Shown in pieces: positions 1,991 to 18,629 of a stretch of 64,000 nucleotides of DNA (positions are counted from its first letter, which is position 1; each line of letters starts with the position of its first letter). Both the position numbers and the translations under genes were made by a program. Source of the DNA: Ruegeria arenilitoris (GTDB taxonomy: Bacteria; Pseudomonadota; Alphaproteobacteria; Rhodobacterales; Rhodobacteraceae); assembly GCF_013030265.1 (NCBI RefSeq), contig NZ_WPZQ01000005.1, forward strand, positions 349,843-413,842, written 5' to 3'. Below the pieces are notes generated by a model that searched no databases, was not told the origin of the DNA, and saw only the letters and a list, made by a program, of their open reading frames with translations.

Positions 1991-2403
1991 TTCCCGAACC
2001 TCACAACGCTGGCCGAACCACTTACATCCGGATCGCGCCAGAGACCTTGGAGGCACGCCAGAAGACAATCAAAAATTCAAATGCGACCCAACTAAATCAG
2101 CCGCTCAATTACAGCCTAACAGATGGTAGGCAGGGCTTGTAAACTAACTTTGACCACGGTGAGTGAGGCGGGTGGCTTAGGGAGACATTCGTAAACGGAA
2201 AGGTAAATTTTCGGACATTGTTTACCAAAGTAAATGTTGTGCCCGAGCTGTCGGGCGAGCGTTTTTAACGCCGATTGGACCACAAAACTCATTTGTGGAG
2301 AAAGGTCCAGCTGGCAGTTTGGATCAGCCGATTTGGACCCGACCCAGCAACAAAAAAGGGCCGGTCATTTGACCGGCCCAGATTATACAGGTGAACCGAG
2401 GGA
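1991..2403. other. Intergenic region with one terminator
   Basis: About 410 bases without a convincing gene, between two minus-strand genes. It should contain the promoter of the carbamoyltransferase on the minus strand; I cannot place convincing -35/-10 boxes. The only clear element is the terminator at 2352-2379. A 137-codon plus-strand frame starting at 2234 runs antisense into the LysM gene and has no protein-like features. Confidence 0.5.
2352..2379 (-). terminator. Rho-independent terminator of the kinase/phosphatase/LysM operon
   Basis: Inverted repeat GGGCCGGTCA / TGACCGGCCC (2358-2367 and 2370-2379), followed on the minus strand by a run of six T (complement of 2352-2357). It lies 24 bases after the stop of the last gene of the operon. 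Confidence 0.9.
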
Positions 2404-3513
2404 TCAGTTCGACGCTGCCATCAGTTTTTCGTTATGCTCGCGCAGTGTGTCGGAAACGATGGCGTACCACTCACCCGATTCACGCATCTCGTTCAGACCT
2501 TTGTTCAGCATGGCCAGGTACTGCTTGCCGAACGGGTTGCTGCGGTGTGCGATGAAACGCAGCGACGACAGCGAGGTCACGAATGGGTTTTCAATCATGT
2601 CGTTCTGGTTCAGGCCCATTTCCGACATGGTGTCCGAGAACAGCTGAACCTCGAAGGTGGCGATGTCCGCGGTACCGGTCAGAACCGCATCAAGGCACTC
2701 ACGCGCGGTGATCGGCTGCATCAGGGTCATGGATTCGCCGTTGTGCAGGCCTTCTTGTTCCAGATCGTGGATGAACCAACCGTCCATACGGCAGATGGTT
2801 GCGCCTTTCAGCTCGTCGAAGGTTGTTGCGTTGGCGTAGTTGCTCTCTGGCAGGGTGTAGAAGCCGACAACAATGTCATACACCGGAACAGACGAGTCGA
2901 ACTGGGTGCAGCGTACTTCGGTTTCCCAAGACCACTCATACGAACGGTTGGTGCAGTCAGGCATGTTCCATGCCATCGATACATCGAACGCGCCGAGCGG
3001 CAGCAGGGTTTCCAGGTGCGAGTTCCAGTCATCTACGAAGCTGACCGAGTAGTCGCGCGCGTTACCGCCACGCTGCAGCGCTGTGGTACCCAGACGGGTA
3101 ATCGCACCACCGCCGTTCAGCGATTCATCCGCGAAAGGTGCCCAGCCGTTGCCGGTGACCAACTTGATCGGTGGCTGGTAAACGCTCGAACGTTGGACGC
3201 TTGCAGCACGCTGTTCTTCCGCCGCGATGATCTCTTGGGCCGAACGGCCGTTCGGCAGGCTACCGTCTTCACAAGGCAGGGCCAGTACCAAGCCCGGCTC
3301 CAGCGAGTTCGGGTTGGTGATGATGTTACGGTTCGCGTTAAAGATCGGCTGGTAGTTCGATGTGCCGTAAGCCGCGATGGCGATCGTCGCCATCGTGTCA
3401 CCGTCGACAACCGTATAGTTTGTACAAGCTTCCTGTGCAGCGGCTGCACCGGCGCTCAGCGCAGTAACGGCTGCGGCCGACATCACTGCTTTCTTCAGTT
3501 TCAATTCAAACAT
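2404..3513 (-). CDS. Exported LysM domain + type 2 solute-binding domain protein
   Basis: 369 residues from the ATG at 3513, which has GGAGG eight bases upstream; a GTG at 3519 also opens the frame but is too close to that site. A signal peptide (basic start, AAAVTALSAGAAAAQ) should be cleaved near AQEA. A LysM module follows (YTVVDGDTMATIA ... NANRNIITNPNSLEPG), predicted to bind peptidoglycan, then a short linker and a ~240-residue domain resembling SBP_bac_3 amino-acid binding proteins (FADESLNGGGAITRL, TICRMDGW, LNKGLNEMRESGEWYAIV). It is a paralogue of the next gene upstream, 44 bases away, and is last in the kinase/FHA/phosphatase operon. No ABC permease or ATPase gene is near, so a sensory or wall-associated role is more likely than transport. 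Cys pairs in both halves suggest periplasmic disulfides. Confidence 0.8.
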   Translation of the reverse strand: MFELKLKKAVMSAAAVTALSAGAAAAQEACTNYTVVDGDTMATIAIAAYGTSNYQPIFNANRNIITNPNSLEPGLVLALPCEDGSLPNGRSAQEIIAAEEQRAASVQRSSVYQPPIKLVTGNGWAPFADESLNGGGAITRLGTTALQRGGNARDYSVSFVDDWNSHLETLLPLGAFDVSMAWNMPDCTNRSYEWSWETEVRCTQFDSSVPVYDIVVGFYTLPESNYANATTFDELKGATICRMDGWFIHDLEQEGLHNGESMTLMQPITARECLDAVLTGTADIATFEVQLFSDTMSEMGLNQNDMIENPFVTSLSSLRFIAHRSNPFGKQYLAMLNKGLNEMRESGEWYAIVSDTLREHNEKLMAASN

Positions 3514-3557
3514 GTCCACTTCCTCCAGACTTTTGTTTTGTCAGGCCTCTTGGGGCC

Positions 3558-4820
3558 TTAGCCATTTTCCATTTGATGACGCAGGGCGGTCGACACGATG
3601 TCGCGCCATTCACCCGATTGCTGCATGATCGCCAGACCCTGATTAAGCGTCTCAAGGATCGCTTCCCCATCTGGATTATCTTTGTGGGTCATGACGTTAA
3701 GCGACTTTACCGCCGCCAGGTTGGGGTTTTCGATGATCTGATGTTCGTAGCCGAGGCGGCTGATGGCTTCGACCGCGAGATGCGCCTCAATTGCGACGAT
3801 GTCAGCGCGGCCATCCATGACGGCGTGGAAACACTCGTCAGGCTCAACCGGGCGAAGCATCGTGATAGCTGGTTCATAGAGGCCGACCGCATCCATGTGC
3901 GACAGCGACCAGCCTTCAGGACGACAAATCGTGGTGCCAGCAAAGTCGGCATAGGTCAGAGTTTCCTCGTAACCGCTTCCTTCCTTGGCAAAGAAGGTGT
4001 CCACAACTTCATAAAACGGGTTCGAGAAGTTGTAAGTTTCGCATCGCACGCGGTCTTTTTCAGACAGGGCCTCTGCTTCTTCACAGTTCGGTCGCGACCA
4101 AGGGAAGGTGGCGTCAAATGCCAAAGTCGGCATCAGCAGATCCAGATGCGATGACCAGTCGTTGACGAACTGGATCTTATAGGCCTGCTCTGGCGCGGCC
4201 CGGAACATGGCGGTTTCAACCAACTGGGTATACAGACCACGATGTGGCAGGGCCTCGTCGGTGAACGGGGCGTAGTTGCCGCCAGTGATCAGTAGCAGCT
4301 GGCGATCGCGGATCTCGGGGCGTTCGCCGCTTGTGGCATTGCGGATCAGCGCGGCACCTTCGGCGCGGGCTGCCTCAATTTCCTTCTTCGCCTCTGCCTT
4401 GGCCGCAATCACGGCCTCTTCGCTGGTTTTCTTGGCCTCAGCTTCAGCTGCCGCAACACGCGCTTCGGCATCTGCAATGGCTTGCTCGGCGCGTGCTTCG
4501 GCGGCTTTGACCAGCTCAGCAGCCATTTCCGCGGCCATGCGCTCGGCTTCAGTCTCACCCTGAGGTATAGCGCGGCCCACGTCTTCCAGGCAGGGGAATT
4601 CCAGAACGTCGCCGACCCGGATGATGTTCGGGTTGGACCCGATCACGTCGCGGTTTGCATCATAGATGATCCGGTAATCTTCGGTCGAGTAGACCTGGAT
4701 TGCCAGTTCCCGCAGGCTGTCGCCGCGCTGGATTTCATATGTTGAACAAGCCTCTTGCGCCGAGGCTGCCCCCGTCGCGGCAGCAAGTGCCAGGCTGGAT
4801 ATGATCAGGTGTGTTCGCAT
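3558..4820 (-). CDS. Exported LysM + coiled coil + solute-binding domain protein
   Basis: 420 residues, paralogue of the downstream gene. Signal peptide (SSLALAAATGAASAQ), LysM module (EIQRGDSLRELAIQVY ... DANRDVIGSNP) at about residues 27-75, then an Ala/Glu/Lys-rich predicted coiled coil at about 88-165 that its paralogue lacks, then an SBP_bac_3-like domain (YAPFTDEALPHRG, TTICRPEGW, LNQGLAIMQQSGEWRDIV). The coiled coil would hold the ligand-binding domain away from the peptidoglycan-bound LysM or mediate oligomerisation. The ligand is unknown. It starts 27 bases after the PP2C phosphatase gene in the same direction. Family assignment of the C-terminal domain rests on motif recognition only. 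Confidence 0.8.
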   Translation of the reverse strand: MRTHLIISSLALAAATGAASAQEACSTYEIQRGDSLRELAIQVYSTEDYRIIYDANRDVIGSNPNIIRVGDVLEFPCLEDVGRAIPQGETEAERMAAEMAAELVKAAEARAEQAIADAEARVAAAEAEAKKTSEEAVIAAKAEAKKEIEAARAEGAALIRNATSGERPEIRDRQLLLITGGNYAPFTDEALPHRGLYTQLVETAMFRAAPEQAYKIQFVNDWSSHLDLLMPTLAFDATFPWSRPNCEEAEALSEKDRVRCETYNFSNPFYEVVDTFFAKEGSGYEETLTYADFAGTTICRPEGWSLSHMDAVGLYEPAITMLRPVEPDECFHAVMDGRADIVAIEAHLAVEAISRLGYEHQIIENPNLAAVKSLNVMTHKDNPDGEAILETLNQGLAIMQQSGEWRDIVSTALRHQMENG

Positions 4821-4847
4821 GAGTCCTGTTGCTTTGCCTTTTTTTGG

Positions 4848-5633
4848 TTATTGTCCTGCCGGCTTGACGACGGCGATTGAAACGTTGTCCTGGTCGGGAT
4901 CCTCCTTGGCCTGCAGCGCCTGCAGCAGGGTATCGGCGATGTCCTGAGACAAAGACTGCGCATGATCATTCAGGATCGACTGGATCTCGTTATTGCTGAG
5001 ATATTGCAGTCCATCACTGCCCAGGATCAGGATGTCATCCGCATTCAGAACCAGAGGCTCTTCGGGACAATCGACCTTGGGAATGGATGCACCCATGATC
5101 ACCGACGTCAGCTGATTGCGGTCGGGGTGTGACCGCGCCTCGTCAGGGGACAAAATCCCCTTGGCGACCTGCGCATCGATCTCGGGGGCCATTGAATGGT
5201 CTTCGTTGATCTGGGTCAGTGTGCCGTCCCGATACAGGTACATCGGGCTGTCACCGATCGAAATCCAGAACACCCGTTGCCCCAGAAGCAGCATGCCCAA
5301 CAAGGTCGAACCCATGCTGAAACCCTGGCTCTGCTCTTCACCGTGATTGGCGATTGCGGCGTTGGCCTGTATCGCAGCCATGGGCAGTGCATCGATCAAT
5401 GCGCCTTCGGCAGCATCGGGATCTTCCATCTGCGCATCGACCACTTCTCTCCAGGCGGAAAGAACCAGCTCTGATGCAACTTCACCCGCTTCGTGGCCAC
5501 CCATACCATCGGCCACCACAACATAACCCGAGTTCGTAGCATCAAAGACACGAGCGGCGATCGCATCTTCCTGCGTTTCGCGCTGACCCTGGTTCAGGAT
5601 CAGTGCAATGTCATATGCCGGAGTCGCCAGCAT
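4848..5633 (-). CDS. PP2C-type Ser/Thr protein phosphatase
   Basis: 261 residues, a single PP2C catalytic domain of normal bacterial length without membrane segments. Metal-binding motifs are all present: RETQEDA near the N-terminus, VVADGMGGHEAGE, ISIGDSPMYL, ILGSDGL and DNVSIAVV at the C-terminus. It would dephosphorylate Ser/Thr-phosphorylated proteins in the cytoplasm using Mn/Mg. It starts 3 bases after the FHA gene stop and is two genes downstream of the Ser/Thr kinase, so it is the natural antagonist of that kinase. The gene order kinase-FHA-phosphatase is complete for a phospho-Thr signalling circuit. Confidence 0.93.
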   Translation of the reverse strand: MLATPAYDIALILNQGQRETQEDAIAARVFDATNSGYVVVADGMGGHEAGEVASELVLSAWREVVDAQMEDPDAAEGALIDALPMAAIQANAAIANHGEEQSQGFSMGSTLLGMLLLGQRVFWISIGDSPMYLYRDGTLTQINEDHSMAPEIDAQVAKGILSPDEARSHPDRNQLTSVIMGASIPKVDCPEEPLVLNADDILILGSDGLQYLSNNEIQSILNDHAQSLSQDIADTLLQALQAKEDPDQDNVSIAVVKPAGQ

Positions 5634-5636
5634 CTA

Positions 5637-6689
5637 TTATGCGTCCCGCCAATCAAAACCATCGTCGCAGAAGGCTGCAAAACGAAGAGAGGTTTCGCTG
5701 ATACGGATCAGGTCTCCGCTGTTCAGTGCGATGGTACTGAGCACCGGTTTGCCATTCAGGCGCACAAGGTTGGCCTTACCGCCATGTCCCAGATAGCATT
5801 TGCGATCTTCCGGGTCATAAGCAATCACAGCATGGTTGCTGCGCGAGATACCCGTATCACCGAAATCGAGCTGAATGGCTTGATCATCGTTACGACCAAT
5901 CTGCATCAGCCCTTCGGTCAGTGTGACACTGGAGCCGCGGCCCGGACCGCTGGTCACGACCAGCCAACCTACGGGGAAGGTTTCTTGTGCAGCTTCGGTC
6001 TTGGCCACCGGTTCGGCGGTTTCCATCAGATCCTGAACATGCGTGTCAGCGCGTTCGAAGCCCAGGAACGTGGTTTTTACGCGCGACCGGCGATCTTCGG
6101 CGGGTGCTGGCGCTGCAAGCGGTTCTGGCTGTTTCTCTTGCTCAGGTTCTGCTGCGACCTGCTCAGCTTCAACTGGCTCAGCCGGGGCTTCGGGTGCTTC
6201 GGCAACCGGTTCAGGCTCAGCGGTGACAGCTTCTGCCGGTGTTTCAGGTTCTGCCGGGGTCTCTGCTATCTCTTCACTTGTTTCTGCAGATGCCTGCGCG
6301 ACGGCAGCCAACATATCTTCTTCTTCGGTGCTTTCAGCGGCCTCGGTCGGTGCCACGTGTAGGGTGACGACCTGTTCCTCTTCGACAGCTTCTGCCTCGA
6401 CGGCCGGTGCCTCAGCAACAGTTTCTTCAGCTTCGGCAATCTCGCCTTCTTCGGCTTTTTCTTCGCGCTCGGCGAAGTCAGGCATCTTTTCTTCGGGGAT
6501 CAGCTCATCGGATTCTTCGTATGAATCGGATGACAGATTACCACCGGCCAATGCCTGACGCAGTGCATTGAAATCCGCAATTGGTTCCTGCTGATCTGCG
6601 GCTTCTTCTTTGGGCTGCTCGGTTTCGGCTTCTTTGGCTTTGCCGGCACCTTCGAGAAGCCGGCTGAGAGGGCTTTTGTATTTGAACAT
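5637..6689 (-). CDS. FHA-domain phosphothreonine-binding protein with long acidic linker
   Basis: 350 residues from ATG 6689 (AAAAGG about ten bases upstream); the frame is open ten codons further to 6719. Residues ~1-230 are a low-complexity, Glu/Ala/Pro-rich, presumably disordered segment. The C-terminal ~105 residues are a typical FHA fold: LMQIGRNDDQAIQL, the SxxH phospho-peptide signature GISRSNHAVI, and LNGKPV in the last strands. Such domains bind phospho-Thr peptides, so this is the likely reader or adaptor for the neighbouring kinase. The N-terminal start (MFKYKSPLSRLLEG) is short and basic and could itself be a docking peptide. It lies 212 bases downstream of the kinase stop and 3 bases before the phosphatase. 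Confidence 0.88.
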   Translation of the reverse strand: MFKYKSPLSRLLEGAGKAKEAETEQPKEEAADQQEPIADFNALRQALAGGNLSSDSYEESDELIPEEKMPDFAEREEKAEEGEIAEAEETVAEAPAVEAEAVEEEQVVTLHVAPTEAAESTEEEDMLAAVAQASAETSEEIAETPAEPETPAEAVTAEPEPVAEAPEAPAEPVEAEQVAAEPEQEKQPEPLAAPAPAEDRRSRVKTTFLGFERADTHVQDLMETAEPVAKTEAAQETFPVGWLVVTSGPGRGSSVTLTEGLMQIGRNDDQAIQLDFGDTGISRSNHAVIAYDPEDRKCYLGHGGKANLVRLNGKPVLSTIALNSGDLIRISETSLRFAAFCDDGFDWRDA

Positions 6690-6901
6690 GGTGTCGACAC
6701 CTTTTTGAATTCTGGGCATGGGGGTTGAGAACCCACGCGTCTGCTACTGTCCTCTGCGCGCAAGTTGCGCAGTGGTACTGATGATTGAAAAAACCAGAGA
6801 ACTCTTACTTTCCGCGGCGGGCCGGTCCCCGTCAGGATGGCTGTTCAGGCAGCCACCCTCAGCAAAACACACACTGGCGGATTACAATTGAACCGGTCAG
6901 A

Positions 6902-9094
6902 CTACTCCTGCGCTAACTGCATGACAGCAGTTGTCTCGGCCCCGTTGCGCAAAACAGTCAGTCGCGCTTCGGGTTGATCATTGGAAACAAGCTGGGCCAA
7001 CGCCTCATCCAGACTTTCCGGACTATCGATGACCGTGTCGGAGTTGTTTTCCCGCAGCAAGATATCCCCTTGTTGCAGCCCACCGGCATGCGCAGCAGGC
7101 ACATTGGTGACAACGGTCTGCCAACCTGCATCAGAGGTATTGCGCACGGTCAGGCCATACCCGTTCTCAAGACCGAACATGCGGATTGCGGGGAGGGCGA
7201 GCAGACCATTCTTGGCCCGTGTCTCACCGATGGGGCGATACCGCGCCGCGACGCGAATATAACCGTCAGGATCCACCTTGAGGTCGTCCAGTACCTGCGC
7301 AGCAAAGGTTGCATCTGCACGAACCGGTTTTCCGTTCAGCGTATAGATAGCTGCTCCGCGCTTGACCCAGTCACCGATGACGGACATGTCCCGGTTAGGA
7401 TCGACGCCGGTAATCGCGATAGTGCTGCCGGTCGAGGCACGCCGCTTGGCCGTTGCAAATGGGATTTCGACGTCCCAGTGTCCAAAGGCAACCTGGTTCT
7501 CAGCCAGATTCACGGGCGTGGCAGGGGCCGGAGTTTCAGCTGCGGCTGTAGCGGCTTCTTCCGCAGAAGGTTCTGCAGCTGCGGTTGGCGTTTCTTCCGG
7601 CTGAACCTCGACAGGCGTAGTCTGAGGCTGCTCAACAGGTTCGCTTTGTGCCTGCTCGACAGGCTGTTCCTGTGCTGCTGAATTGTTCTGGGCAGTTTCT
7701 GTTTCTTCCGCTGCCGCAGGTGTCGGTTCTGCCGGAGCCTCTGCCGTCTGTTCAGCAGGCTCGGGGGTCGGAGCTTGCGTTTCAGGTGCAGGAGTTACCT
7801 CAGCTGTCTCTGCCGGGGCTTCGGGCTCGGACTTGTCACCCGACAATACGAAAAAGCCACCTGCAGCAAGTGCCACCGCCACAACGGCTGCACCAGCAAT
7901 CATCTTGCCGCTGCCGCCTGATCCACTCTGCACCACCGTATCAACGGCAGCTGGGGTGTCCTCACTGGCAGCAAACTTGGCCTGTTCGTCGTCTTTCTTG
8001 TCTTCGTTGCCCAATGCGAGATCGGAGTTGCCTGCCAAAAGCGCTGTCACGACCGCCTCGGCATTCTCGCTTTCCGCTTTGATGCGGGCCTGTTCGGCCT
8101 CTTCATCCTTGCGATCCATACCAACGATCACCGAAACCGGACGGTAAGCGAACGAGTCGAACATCACGCCGGGGCCGCGGAACATGCGCAGCCAGTCCAG
8201 CGCAGTTTGCAGGCGATCGGTTGCATGAACCTCCATCGCCTTGTCGATAGCTTCAAGGAAACCCTCGGGGTATCCTTCGAAACGACCGACCAGTGGAGTG
8301 TAGGGATCCGGCTGACCATTGTTGAAAGCAGTCAGGCGGGATTGACCGTCAACCGGACGTTCGCCGCTGATGGCGTGATACAATGTGGCGGCAAGTACAT
8401 AGAGGTCACTGCTAGGCCCCTGTTCGGCACCGCGAACATAAAACTCGTGCGGGGAATAGCCGTCCTTGATCACCCGAAGCGTCAAAAGCGCCGCAGTCTT
8501 GTTGGCGGCCTGCTCGCGGGCGGCGCCAAAGTCGATCAGGACAGGCTCACCATTTTCATCGATCAGGATGTTATCGGGCGAAATATCACGATGCAGCATG
8601 CCGCTCTGGTGAATGAACGACACCGCTGACAGCATTTTTTCGGTTACCTGAACAATGAAATCCGGACCGGATTCATTCTCAGGATCGTCCATGTAATCCA
8701 ACAGGTCGCAACCGCGGATCAGATCCATCGCGATATATGCAGTGTTGTTGTCCTCAAAGACCTGATGCACATCGACGATGTTGGGGTGAACCAGGCGTGC
8801 ATGGTTGCGGGCCTCTTGAATAAAGAGGTCAACAATCGCGCTCAGATCTTCTTTGTAGGCCGGATCAGCGGGTTCGACATGATCACCGTCGCGGCGGCAA
8901 AGCGCACCCGGATAGCACTCTTTGATGACGACATCACGCTCTAGGCTATCGCGTGCAAGATAGGTGATCCCAAAGCCGCCATTGCTCAGAAAGCGAAGGA
9001 TCTCATACTGGCCACGCAACAGTTTTGCACCTGGTTGCAGACCTTGAATCTGTGGTTCGTCGTGCGATGCACCGACAGCCTGGTTATGGCTCAT
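6902..9094 (-). CDS. Transmembrane Ser/Thr protein kinase with periplasmic PDZ-like domains
   Basis: 730 residues. The kinase domain spans about 28-305: Gly-rich loop LSNGGFGITYLA, ATP lysine K58 in VVIKE, helix-C Glu E94, catalytic HRD at 168-170 (HRDISPDN) and DFG at 188-190. A charged juxtamembrane segment leads to a single transmembrane helix at about 398-419. The outer part begins with a ~100-residue Pro/Glu/Ala/Thr-rich linker and ends with ~190 residues that look like two PDZ-like units, one around 575-620 (LNGKPVRAD) and one around 655-725 (VTNVPAAHAGGLQQGD). An outside PDZ module on a kinase suggests sensing of envelope proteins or misfolded C-termini. It is the first gene of the kinase operon and follows the GTPase operon terminator. 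All catalytic residues are present, so it should be active. Confidence 0.92.
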   Translation of the reverse strand: MSHNQAVGASHDEPQIQGLQPGAKLLRGQYEILRFLSNGGFGITYLARDSLERDVVIKECYPGALCRRDGDHVEPADPAYKEDLSAIVDLFIQEARNHARLVHPNIVDVHQVFEDNNTAYIAMDLIRGCDLLDYMDDPENESGPDFIVQVTEKMLSAVSFIHQSGMLHRDISPDNILIDENGEPVLIDFGAAREQAANKTAALLTLRVIKDGYSPHEFYVRGAEQGPSSDLYVLAATLYHAISGERPVDGQSRLTAFNNGQPDPYTPLVGRFEGYPEGFLEAIDKAMEVHATDRLQTALDWLRMFRGPGVMFDSFAYRPVSVIVGMDRKDEEAEQARIKAESENAEAVVTALLAGNSDLALGNEDKKDDEQAKFAASEDTPAAVDTVVQSGSGGSGKMIAGAAVVAVALAAGGFFVLSGDKSEPEAPAETAEVTPAPETQAPTPEPAEQTAEAPAEPTPAAAEETETAQNNSAAQEQPVEQAQSEPVEQPQTTPVEVQPEETPTAAAEPSAEEAATAAAETPAPATPVNLAENQVAFGHWDVEIPFATAKRRASTGSTIAITGVDPNRDMSVIGDWVKRGAAIYTLNGKPVRADATFAAQVLDDLKVDPDGYIRVAARYRPIGETRAKNGLLALPAIRMFGLENGYGLTVRNTSDAGWQTVVTNVPAAHAGGLQQGDILLRENNSDTVIDSPESLDEALAQLVSNDQPEARLTVLRNGAETTAVMQLAQE

Positions 9095-9315: not shown

Positions 9316-9339
9316 AAAAAAATGGGGGCAGTTGCCCCC
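9316..9339 (-). terminator. Rho-independent terminator of the GTPase operon
   Basis: Stem GGGGGCA / TGCCCCC (9324-9330 and 9333-9339) followed on the minus strand, after CA, by seven T (complement of 9316-9322). It lies about 95 bases after the last GTPase gene stop. Confidence 0.85.
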
Positions 9340-9434: not shown

Positions 9435-10721
9435 TCATGTCCCGGTTTTTGTCTGCGCAGATTCGACTGTGCTTCCGGCCCATGCAAGGTTGTCGCTGAG
9501 CTGAGCGAGTATGCCGATTGCATCTTTGAGCGGGGCATCACCACTCTCGAACTGAAGCAAAAGCAGCAGGTCTGTGGCCTTTTCGAATTCGCCGGGAATC
9601 CAATCTGCTTCCGGGTCAATTTCAGCACCACTTTCCAGGCGTTCAGCGAAGTCCTCAACAATTTCCTGACAGCTTTGGAGGAAGGCTGCCGGTTCGATAT
9701 CCGAGGAATCGCGAAGATCTTCGTAGATGCTGGCGATGGCGGCCAGCCAATCCTCTAGGATAGGATTGTTCAGAGGCGGAAGGGCCGAGCCAAGGCTCGA
9801 CTGAATGGAACGATTGTCGGGTTCAGGTTCTTCAGATTTGTCGCCGGTCAGTTCATCCAGATATGGCATGAAATGTTCCGACAGATCTTTGCGGGCTGCA
9901 TCCAGATCACTTTGACGACGATCCGATGCGGCCTCGAGAACCTGCTCAGCCAGATTCTGACCGCCACAGGTTTCCCAAAGTGCAAAATCGGGTTCAGGCT
10001 CCTTCGCCATGGCGCGCACGGCAACCGGCGTACCAATCGGAACGACAGATCGGAACATGCCGGCCTTTTCTTTCTCAAGGCGCGAAAGAACCCGGTCCAA
10101 GGCATCGCTGACATGAGGAAGGTCGGCATGGGTGACGGCCAACAGGCTGTTGGCTCGCAGTTCTTCCGGAACCTGCGCCCAAAGGTGCCGTTCCGTTTCG
10201 CGCCATGCGTTTGCACCGTTGGTACACCAGATCGCGCAATCGACGAATTTCAACAGGTCCAGGGTTGGCTTGTATGTCTCGTCCAAGGCGCCGGTACCCG
10301 GCAGATCAAACAATGAGATTTCGCGCAGGGCAGGGGTATTCAACCCTACGGAAATAAAGTCGGGATTGTCAGCGGCTGCCTTCTCAAGCGCGATACCAGA
10401 GTAGACTTTGGGTTCTTTGTCCCACCAGCCAACCGTGGTTTCCGGGGTATCGGCATAAGCGACGATCACCAGCGGCAGTTTCAGATGCTGAGGCCCGGTC
10501 GGCAGGATGTCTGCGCCAGCCAGCATATTTGCCAGGCTGGATTTACCTGCACCAAACTCGCCGGCAAAACCGATAGAGACGGCGTTCGACAACCGCTCGG
10601 CATGGGCCAGCGCCCGTGTGCGCATATCATCCAATTCGGGCGTGGACGGCTGCTTTTCGGTCGCGTTGAGAAAACGCTCCAGCTGCCGCACCTCCTGCTC
10701 GGTTCCGGGAAATTCGATCAC
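9435..10721 (-). CDS. Dynamin-like GTPase, short type (second pair)
   Basis: 428 residues starting at a GTG that overlaps the stop of the preceding gene by four bases, implying translational coupling. G1/P-loop GEFGAGKSS at 54-62, G3 DLPG at 139-142, G4 THAD at 197-200. The segment CTNGANAWRETER between G3 and G4 is nearly the same as in the short GTPase at 14275-16068 (CTHSTQAWRETER), so the two are paralogues. Beyond the G domain (to about 280) is an acidic linker and a helical C-terminal region without transmembrane segments. It probably hydrolyses GTP and works with the adjacent long GTPase. The assignment to the dynamin superfamily rests on the G-motif pattern and pairing. Its cellular role is unknown. 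Confidence 0.8.
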   Translation of the reverse strand: MIEFPGTEQEVRQLERFLNATEKQPSTPELDDMRTRALAHAERLSNAVSIGFAGEFGAGKSSLANMLAGADILPTGPQHLKLPLVIVAYADTPETTVGWWDKEPKVYSGIALEKAAADNPDFISVGLNTPALREISLFDLPGTGALDETYKPTLDLLKFVDCAIWCTNGANAWRETERHLWAQVPEELRANSLLAVTHADLPHVSDALDRVLSRLEKEKAGMFRSVVPIGTPVAVRAMAKEPEPDFALWETCGGQNLAEQVLEAASDRRQSDLDAARKDLSEHFMPYLDELTGDKSEEPEPDNRSIQSSLGSALPPLNNPILEDWLAAIASIYEDLRDSSDIEPAAFLQSCQEIVEDFAERLESGAEIDPEADWIPGEFEKATDLLLLLQFESGDAPLKDAIGILAQLSDNLAWAGSTVESAQTKTGT

Positions 10722-12760: not shown

Positions 12761-12832
12761 AACATTTACCCCAAGCACTCGTATTCAAGGATCGACTCAA
12801 CAGAAATAATGAATGTTTTGGGGAGACGGTCA

Positions 12833-13723
12833 TTAGGCCGTCTCCCGTATGGATTTCCACAGACTAACTACAGCACCCAGCTTGCGCGCCTCATGTACGG
12901 CAGCAGCAACGTTCTTGCCGTCGCGCAGCAGGGCAAGTCCGGCACCTTGTCCGCCTGCCGGGCGCATCACGATCAACTGCGGATGCGTGAGGGTTGTTGC
13001 GCTGTCAGCGTCCCAACCGGCAAGATCCTTGGCAAAGTTCTGCAACAATGCCTGATCCGGATGCAGGGGTTGTCCCTCGGTACATGCGCCGTCCAGTTGC
13101 GTGGCGCTGCTATCGCTGGCAGAAAGGAAACGGCCCAAGGCAAAACGCTCGGCACCGTCAAAGAAGCGTTGCGCCATACCCAAACCTTCAGGAACAGCGG
13201 CTTGTTCAATCGCCGAGGGTTCTTGCTCGGAATCTGGCGCGTCTAATGCCACGTCCTCGATATCCGGAACGATCGAAACCCGAGGTTCCGCAGGCAATTC
13301 AATCTGAGCACAGGCGCTTTCGATCTCTGAATAGGTGATGCCCACATCATCTGCTTCCAGCGCAGTATCCGGGCGTACAGACACCAGTTGGAGCGGGCCA
13401 GGCGCGGCGGCGATATTTGAAACAAGCTGGGCCAGCTTTTCCGTCAAAGCCTCGCGCGGCTCGGTTTCGAAATCCGGTACGGAACCGGTGCTGGCACCAA
13501 ATACGTCGGTCACTCGAGAGCTGTTGACCTCAACCGCGAGGCAGTTGCCATTTGGCGATGTAAACTCAAGTCGACGCGGCAGAATAGTGCCGCGTATCAC
13601 ACGAAGCACATCTGACCGGCGGGCATCAGCCGTTTCCCCCGGCAGCTGAATCGCGGGCGACAAACGAGGTCGCGCTGACCGCCCGATGTCTTCGAGCATG
13701 TCGAGTATTTCTGTATCCATCAT
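12833..13723 (-). CDS. Unrecognised protein of the GTPase operon
   Basis: 296 residues, starting at the first of two consecutive ATGs with GAGGGGG seven bases upstream. I do not recognise a family. Visible features: no signal peptide or membrane helix; an N-terminal part with a beta-rich look (RRLEFTSPNGNCLAVEV), an acidic middle, and a C-terminal ~70 residues (HPQLIVMRPAGGQGAGLALL) with an alternating strand/helix pattern. It lies between the roadblock-like gene (23 bases upstream) and the second long GTPase (72 bases downstream), so it is probably a cytoplasmic partner or regulator of the GTPases. Confidence 0.75.
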   Translation of the reverse strand: MMDTEILDMLEDIGRSARPRLSPAIQLPGETADARRSDVLRVIRGTILPRRLEFTSPNGNCLAVEVNSSRVTDVFGASTGSVPDFETEPREALTEKLAQLVSNIAAAPGPLQLVSVRPDTALEADDVGITYSEIESACAQIELPAEPRVSIVPDIEDVALDAPDSEQEPSAIEQAAVPEGLGMAQRFFDGAERFALGRFLSASDSSATQLDGACTEGQPLHPDQALLQNFAKDLAGWDADSATTLTHPQLIVMRPAGGQGAGLALLRDGKNVAAAVHEARKLGAVVSLWKSIRETA

Positions 13724-13746: not shown

Positions 13747-14148
13747 CTAAACTGCGGCCGCAACCGGCCCCAGGCTGAGATGTGATTTCGTAAGCGCCAG
13801 CCCGATATTTGCGCTGTCGCGGCAGATGTAGCAGACCACATGTTCAGGATATTCCTTGGTCCGCAGAAAGATGTGCAGCCGGTCATTCGAAAACACGGCG
13901 ATTTCCCCAAATCCCGGATTTTCCGAATCCTGAACACCTGCTGCACGCAGAAGTTTTTCGAATGCTTTCACACCCTGACCCTGAAACAGATTGGCCACCG
14001 CAACTGCCAGAGTATCCAGAACTTCCTCACTCTCTGGCTCTGTGGTTTTGGTTCCCAACAGCATTCCGGTTTCCATATCTACATATCCGGCTGCGATGCA
14101 GTCGGGGATGGTTTCCATTGCTGTTGTCAACGCAGCTTCGATTGTCAT
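13747..14148 (-). CDS. Roadblock/LC7-like small protein
   Basis: 133 residues, cytoplasmic. The N-terminal pattern (helix, then AAGYVDMETGMLLG, then helix VLDTLAVAVANLF) and the central strands (EIAVFSNDRLHIFLR, VVCYICRD) match the roadblock/LC7 arrangement in which a helix is followed by a strand ending in D-x-x-x-G-x-x-L. Roadblock proteins such as MglB act as dimeric regulators or platforms for small GTPases. Its location inside an operon of four GTPases fits a GAP, GEF or scaffold role, which is inference. Profile-level confirmation is needed because the fold is weakly conserved in sequence. Confidence 0.65.
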   Translation of the reverse strand: MTIEAALTTAMETIPDCIAAGYVDMETGMLLGTKTTEPESEEVLDTLAVAVANLFQGQGVKAFEKLLRAAGVQDSENPGFGEIAVFSNDRLHIFLRTKEYPEHVVCYICRDSANIGLALTKSHLSLGPVAAAV

Positions 14149-14180
14149 CTAAAAACCTGCAACCCTATAAAAATCCTTCA

Positions 14181-14274: not shown

Positions 14275-16068
14275 TCACAAGACATGCCACTCCGCCCCAC
14301 TGTTCTTGTTGGCATTCGGAAGCGCCCGAAGGGCCTCCTTCGTCTGCTTTGCGTTGTGCTCCAGAGCGATCTGGTCGAACTCTTCCAGAAATGCCTTGAA
14401 CACGGTTTTCAGTCCCTGAGAGTCCTCAGGCAGATCTTCGTTGGCTGCAATCTCGCGCCACATGGCCGCCGCGCTTAGCGGTGTTCCTGCAGGCACGTTC
14501 AGAAGCTCTTCCAGCGCGGTTTCGGTTTTGCTGGTTTCGGCCAGAGTTTCCGGTTTTTCAGCTTCGGGTGTCACGTCAGGCATCGACACGACTTCAGCCC
14601 CATTCAGTGCGTTTGACACTGGCTCCGGCTCATACTCATCATTGTTTTCGGATTGCTCGCTGAGCAATGCCGTAATTGAGGAAACCGATACTTCGATTTC
14701 GGAAACAGGCGTTTCCTCAGCTTCAGTCTCTTCTGCAATCGCTATTGGCTGATCAGCAAGTTTGCTGGCCAACGACTCCAGCAGGTCATCCGACTCCGTC
14801 TCATTCGTCTGTTCGGACAGCGCTGGGGCATCTTCAGCCTCAAGAAGCACTTCCTCGTCCTGATCGTCATCGTCGTCGATGTAATCGAGATCGAATTCGT
14901 CACTATCAGACATGGATTGTCCGAGATTGGACAATTCCAACGGATCGTTCGCTGTATCCTTGAAGAAAGCTCGCAGCTCATCTTCGGATGTGCCCGTTGC
15001 AGCGTCTTCCTCGAGGTTGGTTTCAGGAGCCATTTCTGCACGCAGCCGTTCAGCCTCATCCGAGTCAATACGGGTACGTTCGGGTTCTTCGCTTCTCCGC
15101 TCGACCCGGGCTGGGCGTACTGGGAAGCTGGTGATGACATCATCTTCGTCAGTCGGACTGATGGGGGTCTCAGTATCCTCAAGTGGGTTCATCAGTTTCA
15201 GCGGAGCGCTCTGATCTGCTTCGACCGACGCTGGTGCTGCCTGATCCATTTGTTGTTTTGGCCGCAAAGGTTGAACCTTGGGCGCTTCGGACAGGCTCTT
15301 GTCGATCTGGTACCGGGCTAGCTGATCGGCGCGGTTGTCCATGATCTGCTCGGTGATCTCGAGGAAACTGTCGATCATTTTGCCGCCGCCGCTGCGCGAC
15401 CAAAGTTCGGCATCACCTGTCTGGTCACGCGCGGTAATCGCATCACGCGCCGAAAACAGGATCGATCTATTGAACAGATGACCTGCTTCGCGATTCACGC
15501 GGCGCAGTACCTTCTGGCGGTCTTTCGGTCCCAAAGCATCCGCACGTGTGACCAGAAGCAGCGAATTGTGCTGCAGCCGTTCGGGTAACGACACCCAGGT
15601 TGCACGTTCGGTTTCGCGCCATGCCTGCGTCGAGTGGGTGCACCACAATACCCCGTTTGCCTGGCCAACCGCTCGGCGCCACACATCAGTCGAAATCTTG
15701 GGATCCGAGATGCCAGGAGTGTCGATCAGGTCAACAGCTTCAAGAATGTCGGCCTCGAGATAGATTCGGATGAACTGTGCATCGTTGACGCCGATTTCAT
15801 CCAGCTGATCCAGTTCAATATTGCGAGTGCTGCCATCGTGGCCTTTGACATACGCGGACTGATTGCCCCAACTGAACCAAACGGGCGGCAATTGCGTTGC
15901 CGTAACCTGCGTTGGCAGGGCCTGCGTGCGCAACAGGAAGTTCATCAGCGTGGATTTACCAGCGCTGAATTCTCCCATAAGCGCGAAAACGGGCTTGCGG
16001 CGGGACCACTGCTCGATACGCTCCCATGCCCGAGGAGAGACGAAGCGGGTTGTAGAATCTTTTACCAT
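14275..16068 (-). CDS. Dynamin-like GTPase, short G-domain type with long acidic tail (first pair)
   Basis: 597 residues. G1 GEFSAGKS at 32-39, G3 DTPG at 116-119, G4 TRAD at 174-177, and the paralogue-defining CTHSTQAWRETER segment at about 143-155. The G domain ends near residue 270. Residues ~280-520 are strongly acidic and low complexity (for instance DYIDDDDDQDEE), presumably disordered, rich in Ser/Thr that could serve as kinase targets. A short helical C-terminal unit follows (SAAAMWREIAANEDLPE ...). It is paralogous to the GTPase at 9435-10721 but about 170 residues longer because of the acidic tail. It starts 8 bases after the long GTPase stop. Confidence 0.8.
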   Translation of the reverse strand: MVKDSTTRFVSPRAWERIEQWSRRKPVFALMGEFSAGKSTLMNFLLRTQALPTQVTATQLPPVWFSWGNQSAYVKGHDGSTRNIELDQLDEIGVNDAQFIRIYLEADILEAVDLIDTPGISDPKISTDVWRRAVGQANGVLWCTHSTQAWRETERATWVSLPERLQHNSLLLVTRADALGPKDRQKVLRRVNREAGHLFNRSILFSARDAITARDQTGDAELWSRSGGGKMIDSFLEITEQIMDNRADQLARYQIDKSLSEAPKVQPLRPKQQMDQAAPASVEADQSAPLKLMNPLEDTETPISPTDEDDVITSFPVRPARVERRSEEPERTRIDSDEAERLRAEMAPETNLEEDAATGTSEDELRAFFKDTANDPLELSNLGQSMSDSDEFDLDYIDDDDDQDEEVLLEAEDAPALSEQTNETESDDLLESLASKLADQPIAIAEETEAEETPVSEIEVSVSSITALLSEQSENNDEYEPEPVSNALNGAEVVSMPDVTPEAEKPETLAETSKTETALEELLNVPAGTPLSAAAMWREIAANEDLPEDSQGLKTVFKAFLEEFDQIALEHNAKQTKEALRALPNANKNSGAEWHVL

Positions 16069-16076
16069 AACTCTTC

Positions 16077-18089
16077 TTATGCTGCTTCGTTACTAAGGTC
16101 TTTGAGGATGTCACCCAGGATCTCATCACGTGATTTCGTGGGCTGCATCCCTGCCATCAACTCGGCATTGCGTGCGGGATCCTTTTCTGCCGAATGCGAG
16201 ATGCTCAGCAGTGTCTCCTTCTGTTCACGCATGAAGTCCGAGAGAATGGCGCGTACATTTTCAAGTACGGCTGCGATTTGGTTTTCCTCGATGTCCTTGG
16301 TGATCGAATTCGCCTCGGACGCGATCAGGCGCTTGTAATCAGCGGCATATGCTTCAAAGCCCTTGCGTTTTTGCCACCAGCGGCGCCACCAGGTGCTTTG
16401 AAGATCCAGCGCGATTGTACGCCCGATCCCCAGTGGCGGCGGCACGCGCGGAACGATCGGCGCTTCGATGCTGAACTCACCCAGGTGGTTGCCCAACAGC
16501 TTGTGATACAGCGCTTCAACGTCACCTGCGGCAGAAGAATACAGCGCACCTGCGTCTTTGCGCATTGACCGTGCAAAGCTGAAATATGCGGCCTTTTGAA
16601 GGGTGCGAAGTCCGGCCGGATCATATTGCCAAGTGCCCTGTTCGCCGTTCTGCTCGAGATGTGCAATCAGCGAGTCTGTAGCGCGTTTGACAAAGTTTGC
16701 TTCAGCCGAAGCGAGCCGTTCGAGCACTTTGTCGCGCAACGCTGTCGTCAGTTCGGCTACTTTCTTTTCATATTCAGCGGAAACTGCCGAAATCGCGTCT
16801 TCGGGAGATACGCCATCCAGATCGCGTACGACGCCCTCACCACTCGAGAGGTTCTTGGCAACAGCCGTGGCACGAATCTGGCTCGCGATGTTACGCGCGC
16901 GATGACGCACACGATCCAGCAAGCGATTGCCCGCTCCTTCGGCGATTCGTTCATTCATCGCGAGCAATAGATCGGGCAGACCCGATAGCGCCCAGATCTT
17001 GTCCAGCGAAGCCGCCTGTTCACCAAACCCGGCCGCCAGATAGAAAGTGTTCAACGCCTGACGCGATTCCTCGTTCAGAACATCAGGATTACCAGTCAGA
17101 GCGGCCTCGGCCCAAAGGGCACTTCCGAACACGATGCTGGTGTTGGCATCGATATTATTCTGCTTGAGCGTGTCCTGAATGCGATCACGGATCTCCGGGA
17201 CCTGATTAACCGGGTCTGACAGTTCATCAATGCGGTTTACGAACAGGATGATCTGGCGGTTTTCAAACTGCGCGATGATCCGCATCAGAGCCATGTCCAT
17301 GGTGGTCAGTGCCTGGCTGGCCGCCAGAACCACGATACATACTTCTGATCCGCGCAGGCTGCGCAGTGTGATCTGCTCGCGTACCATGAAGGTATCGTTC
17401 ACGCCGGGCGTGTCGCAGAGTTTCAGCGAAATAGGATATTGCGGAATATCCATGTACAGTTCCGCAGATTTTGTCACATCTGCAAAGCGACCGGTCTTGG
17501 GGTCGATGTCCGGGTCGTCTTCATCACCCAGGCAGACATAGCGCTGGATCAGTTCTTCATCGAAATAGTCGTATTGGTGGCTTTGGCCCAACACGAGGTC
17601 GAAATGCTTGCCTAGCCGTTCTTCGGACTTGGCCTTCATCTCACCGATCTGACGCCGGATATCGTCCATTTCGTCATCGGCGCCGGCGCGGTTGGCCAAC
17701 TCGCCCAAGCGGCCGCCGCCGACCATCAGGTTGTCCCATTCTTCCTGCTCAAAGAAGGTAAACTTGGACTTGGTATCACCCGGTGTGCGGGTGTTGATGT
17801 TCAGCGTGGTAACGACCGAGGTCCACGGGTTTACGTCCGATGGCAGCAAGCCCGGGCGACCCGCGAGGATGTTCACAATCGAGGATTTTCCGGCTTTGAC
17901 CTGCCCCACCATCGTGACGCTGGCAGTGAAATTCTCCATCCGCGTCTTGAGCGTTGCAAGTCGGGCCGAGGAGCGCGCATCCGCCACCTCTGTCAATTGG
18001 TCGATCTGCGTCGTCAGCGAAGACATGGCCGATGTCATCGGCGCAAGTGTTTCGTTCCCTACAGACAGAAGGTGATCGTTACGCGCCAT
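16077..18089 (-). CDS. Dynamin-like GTPase, long type (first pair)
   Basis: 670 residues. G1 GQVKAGKSS at 62-70, switch motif LLPSDVNPWTSV, G3 DTPGVND, G4 NRIDEL. A long helical region follows. Around residues 560-580 it has STWWRRWWQKRKGF, an unusual cluster of Trp and basic residues at the place where membrane-binding paddles sit in dynamin-like proteins. No transmembrane helix is evident. It is paralogous to the GTPase at 10718-12760. It is the second gene of the operon, 2 bases after the first gene, and is followed directly by its short partner. GTP-driven membrane binding or remodelling is the family expectation; the actual membrane target is unknown. Confidence 0.87.
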   Translation of the reverse strand: MARNDHLLSVGNETLAPMTSAMSSLTTQIDQLTEVADARSSARLATLKTRMENFTASVTMVGQVKAGKSSIVNILAGRPGLLPSDVNPWTSVVTTLNINTRTPGDTKSKFTFFEQEEWDNLMVGGGRLGELANRAGADDEMDDIRRQIGEMKAKSEERLGKHFDLVLGQSHQYDYFDEELIQRYVCLGDEDDPDIDPKTGRFADVTKSAELYMDIPQYPISLKLCDTPGVNDTFMVREQITLRSLRGSEVCIVVLAASQALTTMDMALMRIIAQFENRQIILFVNRIDELSDPVNQVPEIRDRIQDTLKQNNIDANTSIVFGSALWAEAALTGNPDVLNEESRQALNTFYLAAGFGEQAASLDKIWALSGLPDLLLAMNERIAEGAGNRLLDRVRHRARNIASQIRATAVAKNLSSGEGVVRDLDGVSPEDAISAVSAEYEKKVAELTTALRDKVLERLASAEANFVKRATDSLIAHLEQNGEQGTWQYDPAGLRTLQKAAYFSFARSMRKDAGALYSSAAGDVEALYHKLLGNHLGEFSIEAPIVPRVPPPLGIGRTIALDLQSTWWRRWWQKRKGFEAYAADYKRLIASEANSITKDIEENQIAAVLENVRAILSDFMREQKETLLSISHSAEKDPARNAELMAGMQPTKSRDEILGDILKDLSNEAA

Positions 18090-18091
18090 GT

Positions 18092-18586
18092 TTAGCCTCC
18101 GGTGCCAGTAGCGGGAATCTGTGCCTCTGCAACGTCAGACAGACGTCCAGCCGGAATACTGGTAAGTGTGTCGATCCGCGCGATCAGATCCAGAGCGTTA
18201 CCCAAGATCGCAGCTTCTTTGCGCGGAGAGATCGATTCGTAGGCCTGTGAGTCAGCCAGAACTTCGATCGAGCTGAACCGGTCGCCATTCTCAAGGCAGG
18301 CTACGCGCCGACCTGTCGGGAAGCCATCGGATTTGCTGGATGGCAGCGGCATCCGGGTATTGGCCAGCAGATACTGTTCGCCTGAATGCGTCTTGAGCGC
18401 GATACCAAAGCCCGTATCAGGGTGTTGTTTGTTCAGAGTTTTGAGCTCGCCGATAAAGCTCTCACGTGCAAGAAAGACAGCGTCTTGCTCGGCGGCAGCG
18501 GAGTTGATCTGTTCGGTCACGACGGAGACCCTTGTGTTGGAGTTGAGCAGGAACTCGTAACAATGCCTCGCGGCGAAAAGACTCAT
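18092..18586 (-). CDS. Unrecognised first gene of the GTPase operon
   Basis: 164 residues from ATG 18586, preceded by AAGGAG three bases upstream (short spacing but a strong site); the frame is open back to 18682, where the extra residues look non-coding. I do not recognise the family. It is a soluble protein with mixed strands and helices: the start MSLFAARHCYEFLLNSN, a central FGIALKTHSGEQYLLANT strand pair, and a C-terminal helix (ISPRKEAAILGNALDLIARI). It starts the operon and ends 2 bases before the first long GTPase, so tight coupling and a shared function are likely. Confidence 0.7.
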   Translation of the reverse strand: MSLFAARHCYEFLLNSNTRVSVVTEQINSAAAEQDAVFLARESFIGELKTLNKQHPDTGFGIALKTHSGEQYLLANTRMPLPSSKSDGFPTGRRVACLENGDRFSSIEVLADSQAYESISPRKEAAILGNALDLIARIDTLTSIPAGRLSDVAEAQIPATGTGG

Positions 18587-18600
18587 TAACTCCTTGCTAG

Positions 18601-18629
18601 AAATAACAACCTTTAAGGCGGTGTTATTT
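18601..18629. promoter_or_regulatory. Inverted repeat in 5' leader of the GTPase operon
   Basis: AAATAACAACC (18601-18611) and GGTGTTATTT (18620-18629) form an inverted repeat with a one-base indel, enclosing the 9-base palindrome CCTTTAAGG. It is centred about 30 bases upstream of the first start codon, just beyond the ribosome binding site. It could be an operator or a leader hairpin. Confidence 0.35.

What the first reader, a model, noticed from the sequence alone, without database searches (positions are those of the whole stretch)
2352..18629. Candidate undescribed system: kinase/FHA/phosphatase, LysM sensors and four dynamin-like GTPases
Seen: two adjacent minus-strand operons with their own terminators. 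One encodes two long/short pairs of dynamin-like GTPases with a roadblock-like protein and two unrecognised proteins. The other encodes a transmembrane Ser/Thr kinase with an outside PDZ-like tail, an FHA protein, a PP2C phosphatase and two exported LysM + solute-binding proteins. Known: PP2C/STPK/FHA circuits often govern envelope or secretion machines, and bacterial dynamins remodel membranes. Inferred: cell-wall or ligand signals read by the LysM/SBP proteins reach the kinase and tune GTPase-driven membrane remodelling. I know of no described system with this gene set.
Basis: partly seen in the sequence, partly recalled or inferred. Interest (0 to 1): 0.9.

Follow-up and report, generated by a model that had tools for sequence, protein, structure and literature searches.

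The report
Kinase-linked bacterial dynamin gene system
Many bacteria of one family, the Rhodobacteraceae, carry a conserved gene cluster for a protein kinase, its phosphatase, a phospho-binding protein and dynamin-like GTPases, which likely lets the cell read signals at its envelope and would switch membrane-acting GTPases through phosphorylation, a wiring that our literature searches did not find described.

The parts
18092..18682 (-). unkA, 196 aa, no recognised domain (start codon uncertain; relatives are 134-209 aa)
   Evidence: ORF; no Pfam hit; found next to dynA in Ruegeria, Aliiroseovarius, two Roseovarius loci and one Defluviimonas locus; lengths
16077..18089 (-). dynA, 670 aa dynamin-like GTPase (long)
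   Evidence: Dynamin_N 43.4 bits; profile of relatives matches BDLP 2j68 (1.9e-9) and 5owv (4.7e-9) best among solved structures; 84-94% identical in 53 other genus members
16365..16460 (-). dynA residues about 544-575: Trp-rich basic stretch, invariant W567 W568 (candidate membrane-binding tip, inferred)
   Evidence: invariant columns of the 17-row alignment A2
14275..16068 (-). dynB, 597 aa: dynamin-like G domain plus long acidic, low-complexity tail (250-340 aa in many relatives)
   Evidence: Dynamin_N 40.0 bits; sequence
13747..14148 (-). rob, 133 aa, predicted roadblock/LC7 fold
12833..13723 (-). unkB, 296 aa, two predicted domains
   Evidence: AF2 pLDDT 86.9, pTM 0.57
12836..13192 (-). 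unkB residues 178-296: second predicted roadblock-fold domain
10718..12778 (-). dynC, 686 aa dynamin-like GTPase (long, second copy; Ruegeria-type clusters)
   Evidence: Dynamin_N 54.8 bits
9435..10721 (-). dynD, 428 aa dynamin-like GTPase (short), G1 and G3 present
   Evidence: Dynamin_N 37.8 bits; sequence
9324..9339 (-). intrinsic-terminator-like hairpin between the two operons
6902..9094 (-). kin, 730 aa Hanks-type Ser/Thr kinase with a membrane span and a PDZ-like tail predicted to lie outside
   Evidence: Pkinase 96.5 bits, PDZ 20.8 bits (below cut-off)
7835..7900 (-). kinase membrane span, residues about 399-420
   Evidence: hydropathy maximum 2.42 at residue 399
6950..7165 (-). kinase PDZ-like domain, residues about 644-715
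   Evidence: PF00595 and PF17820 sub-threshold
5637..6719 (-). fha, 360 aa, acidic low-complexity N-terminal part and C-terminal FHA domain
   Evidence: FHA 32.1 bits; sequence
6057..6077 (-). conserved KTTFLGF motif ahead of the FHA domain, predicted phospho-threonine site
   Evidence: alignment; pattern in 97 of 103 FHA ORFs, in 1 of 15 SBP-OmpA ORFs and in no other protein family of the cluster
4848..5633 (-). pp2c, 261 aa PP2C phosphatase
   Evidence: PP2C_2 56.3 bits; NCBIfam Stp1 146.8 bits (cut-off 230)
3558..4820 (-). lysmB, 420 aa LysM + solute-binding protein, predicted exported
   Evidence: SBP_bac_3 21.0 bits (below cut-off); NCBIfam LysM model 1.8e-6 (below cut-off)
2404..3519 (-). 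lysmA, 371 aa LysM + solute-binding protein, predicted exported
   Evidence: LysM 15.8 bits (below cut-off); NCBIfam LysM model 2.7e-10 (below cut-off)
2358..2379 (-). intrinsic-terminator-like hairpin after lysmA

Best explanation
A conserved Rhodobacteraceae gene cluster encodes a Hanks-type kinase, a PP2C phosphatase, an FHA protein, dynamin-like GTPases and two proteins with predicted roadblock folds, and it likely works as an envelope-sensing phospho-switch that would control the GTPases at the inner membrane. Shown by sequence and calls: the gene set, its linkage in several arrangements, a hydrophobic span in the long form of the kinase, solute-binding-protein genes with LysM or OmpA domains beside part of the long kinases, the conserved Thr motif of the FHA protein. 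Predicted: the roadblock folds. Inferred, step by step: wall-anchored SBPs (LysM-SBP or SBP-OmpA) bind a solute or wall fragment and engage the kinase's outer PDZ-like tail; the kinase phosphorylates the Thr of [KR]T[RT]x[LI]GF in the FHA protein; an FHA domain binds that phospho-Thr in cis or in a neighbouring molecule, which changes its partner; the FHA protein then acts on the rob/unkB roadblock proteins, which serve as GAP or scaffold for DynA/DynB (and DynC/DynD); PP2C resets the switch. Output: assembly of the long GTPase on the membrane, which reshapes or tethers it.
For: Linkage: 54 of 54 genus members; in the order sample 38 genomes have both, 3 dynA only, 3 kinase only, 57 neither (Fisher p 1e-20, not corrected for kinship); 36 of 46 fetched dynA loci of that sample and 64 of 80 named loci, most of them Ruegeria, contain kinase-block genes. 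Rearranged yet adjacent: (1) window order; (2) kin-fha-pp2c-dynD-dynA-dynB-rob-unkB; (3) divergent (L141); (4) convergent (L142, L143, L147, L150); (5) kinase block with LysM upstream (L159); (6) codirectional without dynC (L149, L151); (7) Leisingera plasmid with the LysM-SBP genes inside the kinase operon; (1)-(6). Flanking genes do not recur like this: apart from the system's own families only one other (F7, not identified; 16 loci) was seen in more than 10 of 43 dynA loci. Roadblock folds. FHA motif. Sensors: in the order sample, among clusters with GTPase genes, 8 of 14 with a long membrane kinase have LysM-SBP or SBP-OmpA/PilJ genes in the fetched stretch, 0 of 21 with a short kinase (one truncated kinase set aside); the other 6 long ones, all of genus g4, have LysM-SBP elsewhere in the genome, and the g4 genome whose only match is the LysM part, G083, has SBP-OmpA at the cluster. 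GTPase motifs: dynA G1 and G3 in 129 of 134 ORFs, dynC in 62 of 62 (near-copies and overlapping stretches included).
Against: No experiment. Long/short kinase changes only twice on the kinase tree, so the sensor correlation is one or two independent events, sign test p = 1. Exceptions to it: a 382-aa kinase in G052 lies in the same stretch as SBP-OmpA and PilJ genes (L189); two large kinases in L190 have none; one 'short' kinase, L061, has a hydrophobic segment near its end; the short-kinase genome G096 has a LysM-SBP pair about 10 kb beyond its cluster, and G043 and G073 have LysM-SBP elsewhere. The kinase subfamily also occurs without GTPases: 29 of 67 kinase hits (some are pieces of one gene) are not within 12 kb of a dynA hit, and some stand alone (L181-L183, L186, L187). 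10 of 46 dynA loci show no kinase block, among them tandem A-B-A-B clusters. Ligand and PDZ contact have no support beyond gene neighbourhood. In kinase-linked clusters without dynC the DxPG pattern is found in 0 of 31 dynD and 22 of 40 dynB with a readable G1. No dynamin has a clear membrane span (dynA's hydropathy maximum, 1.73, lies within the G domain).
Confidence: 0.5

Rival explanations
1. The same circuit, but the GTPases are signalling relays rather than membrane-remodelling machines: like RdcA (YjdA), which with RdcB switches a membrane diguanylate cyclase, they would dock on a further enzyme or transporter encoded elsewhere.
For: RdcA is a soluble dynamin-like GTPase whose GTP hydrolysis controls DgcE (PMC6510439, passages). 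dynC matches the CrfC/YjdA model weakly (22.2 bits, cut-off 1146). In the form seen most often only one long GTPase exists, dynB can be little more than a G domain (from 250 aa) and dynD shows no DxPG motif. Conservons pair a kinase, an MglB homologue and a GTPase as a signalling unit (PMC4316618, passages).
Against: DynA's profile matches the membrane-binding dynamins 2j68 and 5owv best (5owv is labelled 'GTP-binding protein', its identity as Cj-DLP is recalled), long and short genes are paired as in a liposome-tethering DLP pair (PMC6104087, passages), and a conserved Trp-rich stretch is present. No output enzyme was seen to recur beside the cluster.
Confidence: 0.3
2. An anti-phage or envelope-damage defence system, in which the kinase senses attack and the dynamins seal or kill the cell.
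For: Some bacterial dynamins are defence proteins (recalled); PADLOC LeoA/LeoBC models match the four GTPases at 16-37 bits (given 10 of the 12 proteins). Plasmid-borne copies in Leisingera; present in 41 of 101 order genomes; sensors are swapped.
Against: 54 of 54 genus members carry it, with dynA 84-94% identical, which is unlike patchy defence islands (recalled). No match in 50,697 phage records. The PADLOC kinase matches cover the kinase domain that many kinases share. Flanks hold metabolic, transport and regulatory genes.
Confidence: 0.1
3. A threonine-phosphorylation pathway of the type VI secretion kind (PpkA-PppA-Fha) whose machine lies elsewhere; the dynamins are neighbours only.
For: Same trio of kinase, PP2C and FHA; Fha binds phospho-Thr of TssL in Agrobacterium (PMC3953482, title and abstract start in the listing).
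Against: No VipB/TssC match in the window's genome, while E. coli among the 14 controls rings. The GTPase genes stay with the trio through seven arrangements. Other genomes were not searched for T6SS.
Confidence: 0.03
4. Two independent operons that happen to be neighbours.
For: A terminator-like hairpin separates them in the window; kinase-only and dynA-only loci exist.
Against: Co-occurrence 38/3/3/57 and adjacency in several orders and orientations; in the form seen most often all genes form one codirectional run.
Confidence: 0.05

Closest known systems
Actinobacterial conservons (CvnA histidine kinase, CvnB roadblock, CvnC, CvnD small GTPase)
   Same: Membrane kinase, MglB-fold protein and GTPase encoded together as one switch (PMC4316618, passages)
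   Different: Hanks kinase with PP2C and FHA instead of histidine kinase; dynamin-like instead of small Ras-like GTPases; two roadblock proteins; SBP sensor genes
Type VI secretion threonine phosphorylation pathway (PpkA, PppA, Fha)
   Same: Ser/Thr kinase, PP2C and FHA trio acting at the envelope (listing)
   Different: No T6SS marker VipB in this genome; partner genes are dynamin-like GTPases
Bacterial dynamin-like proteins and pairs (BDLP, Cj-DLP1/2, LeoABC)
   Same: Dynamin_N G domains; long GTPase nearest to 2j68 and 5owv by profile; genes in pairs
   Different: Short partners nearly G domain only, or without DxPG, in many clusters; phospho-signalling and roadblock genes in the cluster
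E. coli RdcA-RdcB (YjdA/CrfC-YjcZ)
   Same: Dynamin-like GTPase used in signalling at a membrane protein (PMC6510439, passages)
   Different: The passages seen name one partner, RdcB, and no kinase, FHA, PP2C or roadblock partner
MglA-MglB polarity module; eukaryotic Rag-Ragulator
   Same: Roadblock-fold partners for GTPases; in Ragulator nutrient input (recalled)
   Different: Small Ras/Rag GTPases; no FHA, PP2C or dynamin (recalled)

Membership tests
Bacterial dynamin-like proteins | Dynamin_N G domain above the curated cut-off | tested here: met
   four window proteins 37.8-54.8 bits against 27
Bacterial dynamin-like proteins | G1 and G3 motifs present | tested here: met
   window dynA-D all have them by eye. 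In relatives: dynA 129 of 134, dynC 62 of 62; but in kinase-linked clusters without dynC, DxPG in 0 of 31 dynD and 22 of 40 dynB with a readable G1
Bacterial dynamin-like proteins | helical trunk with lipid-binding tip; membrane binding | not testable with these tools
   length fits in dynA and dynC; the profile match to 5owv reaches beyond the G domain (profile 234-479)
Roadblock/LC7 (MglB) | roadblock fold | tested here: met
Roadblock/LC7 (MglB) | match to the family's sequence model | tested here: not met
   no Pfam family up to E 0.1 for rob or unkB, nor for a distant rob and unkB (L045); so a relative by fold, not a Pfam member
Roadblock/LC7 (MglB) | GAP or scaffold activity on the GTPases | not testable with these tools
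   needs biochemistry
T6SS threonine phosphorylation pathway | T6SS core genes in the genome | tested here: not met
   VipB PF05943: 0 matches in the own genome
Actinobacterial conservon | histidine kinase and small Ras-like GTPase | tested here: not met
   kinase is Pkinase; GTPases are Dynamin_N
PASTA kinases (PrkC/PknB/Stk1) | external PASTA repeats; NCBIfam NF033483 cut-off | tested here: not met
   132.5 bits against 450; no PASTA family in the Pfam list
LeoABC / dynamin-type defence | match to PADLOC models with the system's gene set | tested here: inconclusive
   LeoA 19.8-36.5 bits and LeoBC 16.2-33.3 bits over the four GTPases; no curated cut-off shown
LysM domain | Pfam LysM above cut-off | tested here: inconclusive
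   window lysmA 15.8 bits, below 20.9; lysmB no hit; 3 of 6 relatives scanned pass

The most novel reading that the evidence does not exclude
A bacterial counterpart in logic of nutrient-sensing GTPase switches: wall-anchored solute-binding proteins report to a membrane Ser/Thr kinase, whose FHA/PP2C relay acts through two roadblock proteins on dynamin-like GTPases, making it the first dynamin machinery under Hanks-kinase control and a modular one whose sensors are swapped between LysM-SBP and SBP-OmpA types.
Probability: 0.35. Interest if true: 0.92.

Novelty: categorically new. Interest (0 to 1): 0.8.

Why it matters
Kinase, FHA and PP2C trios in Gram-negatives are best known from secretion machines, and what controls bacterial dynamins is an open question (both recalled). 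This cluster puts both in one conserved unit, adds predicted roadblock proteins, a fold that elsewhere regulates GTPases, and names a conserved Thr to test. It was found in 54 of 54 genomes of the window's genus, most of whose named relatives are marine Ruegeria, so it can be studied in ordinary laboratory strains of that genus.

Tried and rejected
Defence and T6SS readings: see rivals. Sequence-profile link between rob and unkB: none (hhalign probability 0.8%), so the second roadblock rests on the predicted fold alone. lysmB against solved structures: only weak LptE matches at E 0.07-0.09, not used. The Thr motif was sought in all other cluster proteins: 1 of 15 SBP-OmpA ORFs, otherwise none. 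The long-kinase/sensor correlation looked strong by raw counts but shrinks to one or two contrasts on the tree. unkA and the N-terminal part of unkB were not resolved: the two structure jobs went to rob and unkB, and the fold list for unkB is filled by its C-terminal domain, so nothing is claimed of the rest. The promoter scan gave no more sites than shuffles (7 against 8.7). Search outside the family with the dynA profile: class sample 1 of 240 genomes, the own one; phylum sample 4 of 299 strong, all of this family, plus two weak partial hits at 1.8e-7 and 1.6e-6. At most 3 or 4 candidates per genome were scored in those two searches, so weak relatives can be missed. Remote plasmid matches in Pseudomonas (2) and Calditerrivibrio (1), E about 1e-6, cover 35% of dynA and were not followed.

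Rows dropped: one search left out L012, L063 and L173-L176 (overlaps or no kinase in view) and the search loci L167 and L168, and marked 4 kinases as truncated; my count of 14 long and 21 short kinases takes only order-sample loci with GTPase genes on the dynA-type clusters (L028-L086, L169-L172), without truncated L034. Outside that count, the order-sample stretches fetched for other kinase hits gave 5 long kinases with SBP-OmpA (L177-L180, L185), two large ones without (L190), and short ones without (L181-L184, L186-L188). One search used a chosen subset (66 rows), with most Ruegeria left out as near-copies. One search left out L063 (its cluster is counted as L172), does not list L031 (no dynA on that contig; its genome's dynA is L012, counted as without kinase block), and sees only stretches fetched, some cut by contig ends. 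One search kept the best 80 of 553 relatives. and one search count ORFs, near-copies and overlapping stretches included; G3 was sought only where G1 was found. Kinase hits away from dynA were fetched for a selection, not all. PADLOC and NCBIfam were given 10 of the 12 proteins each.

Full report
What is there. The minus strand of window 2404-18682 encodes twelve genes in two runs. Upstream run: unkA (196 aa), dynA (670), dynB (597), rob (133), unkB (296), dynC (686), dynD (428), followed by a hairpin with a T-run at 9339-9324. Downstream run: kin (730), fha (360), pp2c (261), lysmB (420), lysmA (371), followed by a hairpin at 2379-2358 (the scan as a whole is not above shuffles). Pfam supports four Dynamin_N GTPases, Pkinase, FHA and PP2C above cut-off; PDZ, LysM and SBP_bac_3 fall below it in the window itself, although LysM passes it in 3 of 6 relatives scanned. 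The 4.62-Mb genome is a Ruegeria or close relative: nearly every named unkB homologue is Ruegeria, and so are the closest named loci.

The two runs are one unit. In the window's genus 54 of 54 genomes have both kinase and dynA on one contig with a gap of 6,681-7,011 bases. In an even sample of 101 genomes of the order, 41 have dynA, 41 the kinase at E 1e-25 and 38 both; 34 have the two within 12 kb. These counts are not corrected for kinship. Of 46 fetched dynA loci of that sample, 36 include kinase, FHA or PP2C genes; of 80 named loci, most of them Ruegeria, 64 do, and 6 of the other 16 are contigs under 7 kb. The order of genes differs: window type (Ruegeria, Aliiroseovarius, Roseovarius albus); kin-fha-pp2c-dynD-dynA-dynB-rob-unkB, the form seen most often in the order sample; divergent (Actibacterium, L141); convergent (Defluviimonas L142, L143, L147; L150 without LysM); kinase block with LysM-SBP upstream (Roseovarius aestuarii, L159); codirectional without dynC (Frigidibacter L149, L151). 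A Leisingera plasmid has dynA-dynB-rob-unkB facing kin-LysM-LysM-fha-pp2c-dynD (gene identities from position, annotation), and another plasmid of the same strain the common form with a 438-aa kinase. Rearrangement without separation is the strongest evidence that the parts work together. Exceptions: 10 of 46 dynA loci show no kinase block, among them tandem A-B-A-B clusters; kinase blocks also occur without dynA in view (L177, L178, L185) and kinases stand alone (L181-L183, L186, L187).

Range. A dynA profile found only the own genome among 240 sampled from the class, and four genomes of this family plus two weak partial hits among 299 of the phylum. No phage record matched. Plasmid matches were Leisingera (12), Ruegeria (5) and Rhodobacter (1), plus three remote ones.

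A conserved Thr. Ahead of the FHA domain, in an otherwise variable region, the FHA protein keeps [KR]T[RT]x[LI]GF: in the 40 aligned rows the Thr is there every time, and three rows (L031, L054, L061) depart elsewhere in the motif. A slightly wider pattern, [KR]T[RTKSQ]x[LIVM]GF, occurs in 97 of 103 FHA ORFs (near-copies included), in 1 of 15 SBP-OmpA ORFs and in no other protein family of the cluster. With L or I at Thr+3 it resembles FHA ligands (recalled). I infer that it is the kinase's site and is read by an FHA domain, as phospho-Thr of TssL is read by Fha in Agrobacterium (PMC3953482, title and abstract start in the listing).

Sensors. Kinases fall into long forms with a membrane span and tail and short ones, nearly all without a span. 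Among order-sample clusters with GTPase genes, 8 of 14 with a long kinase have LysM-SBP or SBP-OmpA genes (some with PilJ-domain proteins) in the fetched stretch, against 0 of 21 with a short one; one of the 21, L061, has a hydrophobic segment near its end, and G096 (L172) has a LysM-SBP pair about 10 kb beyond its cluster, outside the stretch. Among other kinase loci, L177-L180 and L185 are long with SBP-OmpA, L190's two large kinases have none, and a 382-aa kinase in G052 sits by SBP-OmpA and PilJ genes (L189). SBP-OmpA has another SBP family (PBP_like_2 rather than SBP_bac_3) and another wall-binding domain (OmpA rather than LysM), so two differently built proteins with the same plan occupy the place. 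The six long-kinase loci without either are of genus g4, whose genomes have LysM-SBP elsewhere. On the kinase tree the long form changes twice only, so this is one or two events and not statistically independent support.

GTPases. dynA and dynC keep G1 and G3 nearly always (129 of 134; 62 of 62 ORFs). dynD keeps DxPG in 60 of 61 ORFs of clusters that have dynC, and in none of the 31 with a readable G1 in kinase-linked clusters without dynC, where 12 more have no G1 match; dynB there keeps it in 22 of 40. The pattern is narrow, so I take this as a hint of degenerate, perhaps regulatory, short GTPases. The dynA profile matches 2j68 (bacterial dynamin-like protein) and 5owv (labelled GTP-binding protein; Cj-DLP by recall) first, and its second half has an invariant Trp pair in a basic stretch. 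The Cj-DLP pair tethers liposomes (PMC6104087, passages); RdcA is a soluble dynamin-like GTPase used in signalling (PMC6510439, passages). Both outputs are open.

How it likely works. See best explanation: the linkage, the motif and the domain make-up are shown, the folds predicted, the flow of signal inferred. Novelty: eight answered searches of the held open-access library (18, 19, 52, 56, 78, 87, 90, 91; listings seen, passages of three papers read) returned no paper on this gene set; subscription papers are mostly not held. The record annotates the genes one by one, three of them as hypothetical. Each recognised part belongs to a known family or fold; the assembly does not meet the defining features of conservons, T6SS phosphorylation pathways or PASTA kinases, and I therefore rate the system, not its parts, as new.

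Noticed in passing
L060, L065, L066, L082, L201 (Rhodobacter sp. CZR27 plasmid, 817-7665): Tandem clusters of four dynamin-like genes (A-B-A-B) without the kinase block in view; in L201 followed by a sensor histidine kinase and a DUF6781 protein.
   Followed up: partly
L067-L081: LysM-SBP genes also occur away from the cluster, in four loci as pairs (L067-L070) and in three beside an SBP-OmpA-like gene (L071, L072, L080); they may be a general envelope-sensor family.
   Followed up: partly
L190 (G009): Two large kinases (816 and 1218 aa) of the same subfamily side by side, near a 759-aa ORF with a PP2C match; no dynamin-like gene in the stretch.
   Followed up: no
L177, L178, L185: Kinase-FHA clusters with dynD, and in two of them rob and unkB-like genes, beside SBP-OmpA but with no dynA in view.
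   Followed up: partly
window 20123-21097: Rubrerythrin fused to a VIT1-type domain, near a tRNA-Leu gene (19280-19364).
   Followed up: no
L199 12628-13863: The dynD-position gene of a Leisingera plasmid is annotated 'zeta toxin family protein'; it has weak P-loop hits only (Zeta_toxin 19.6 against 22.3 bits), probably a mislabel.
   Followed up: partly
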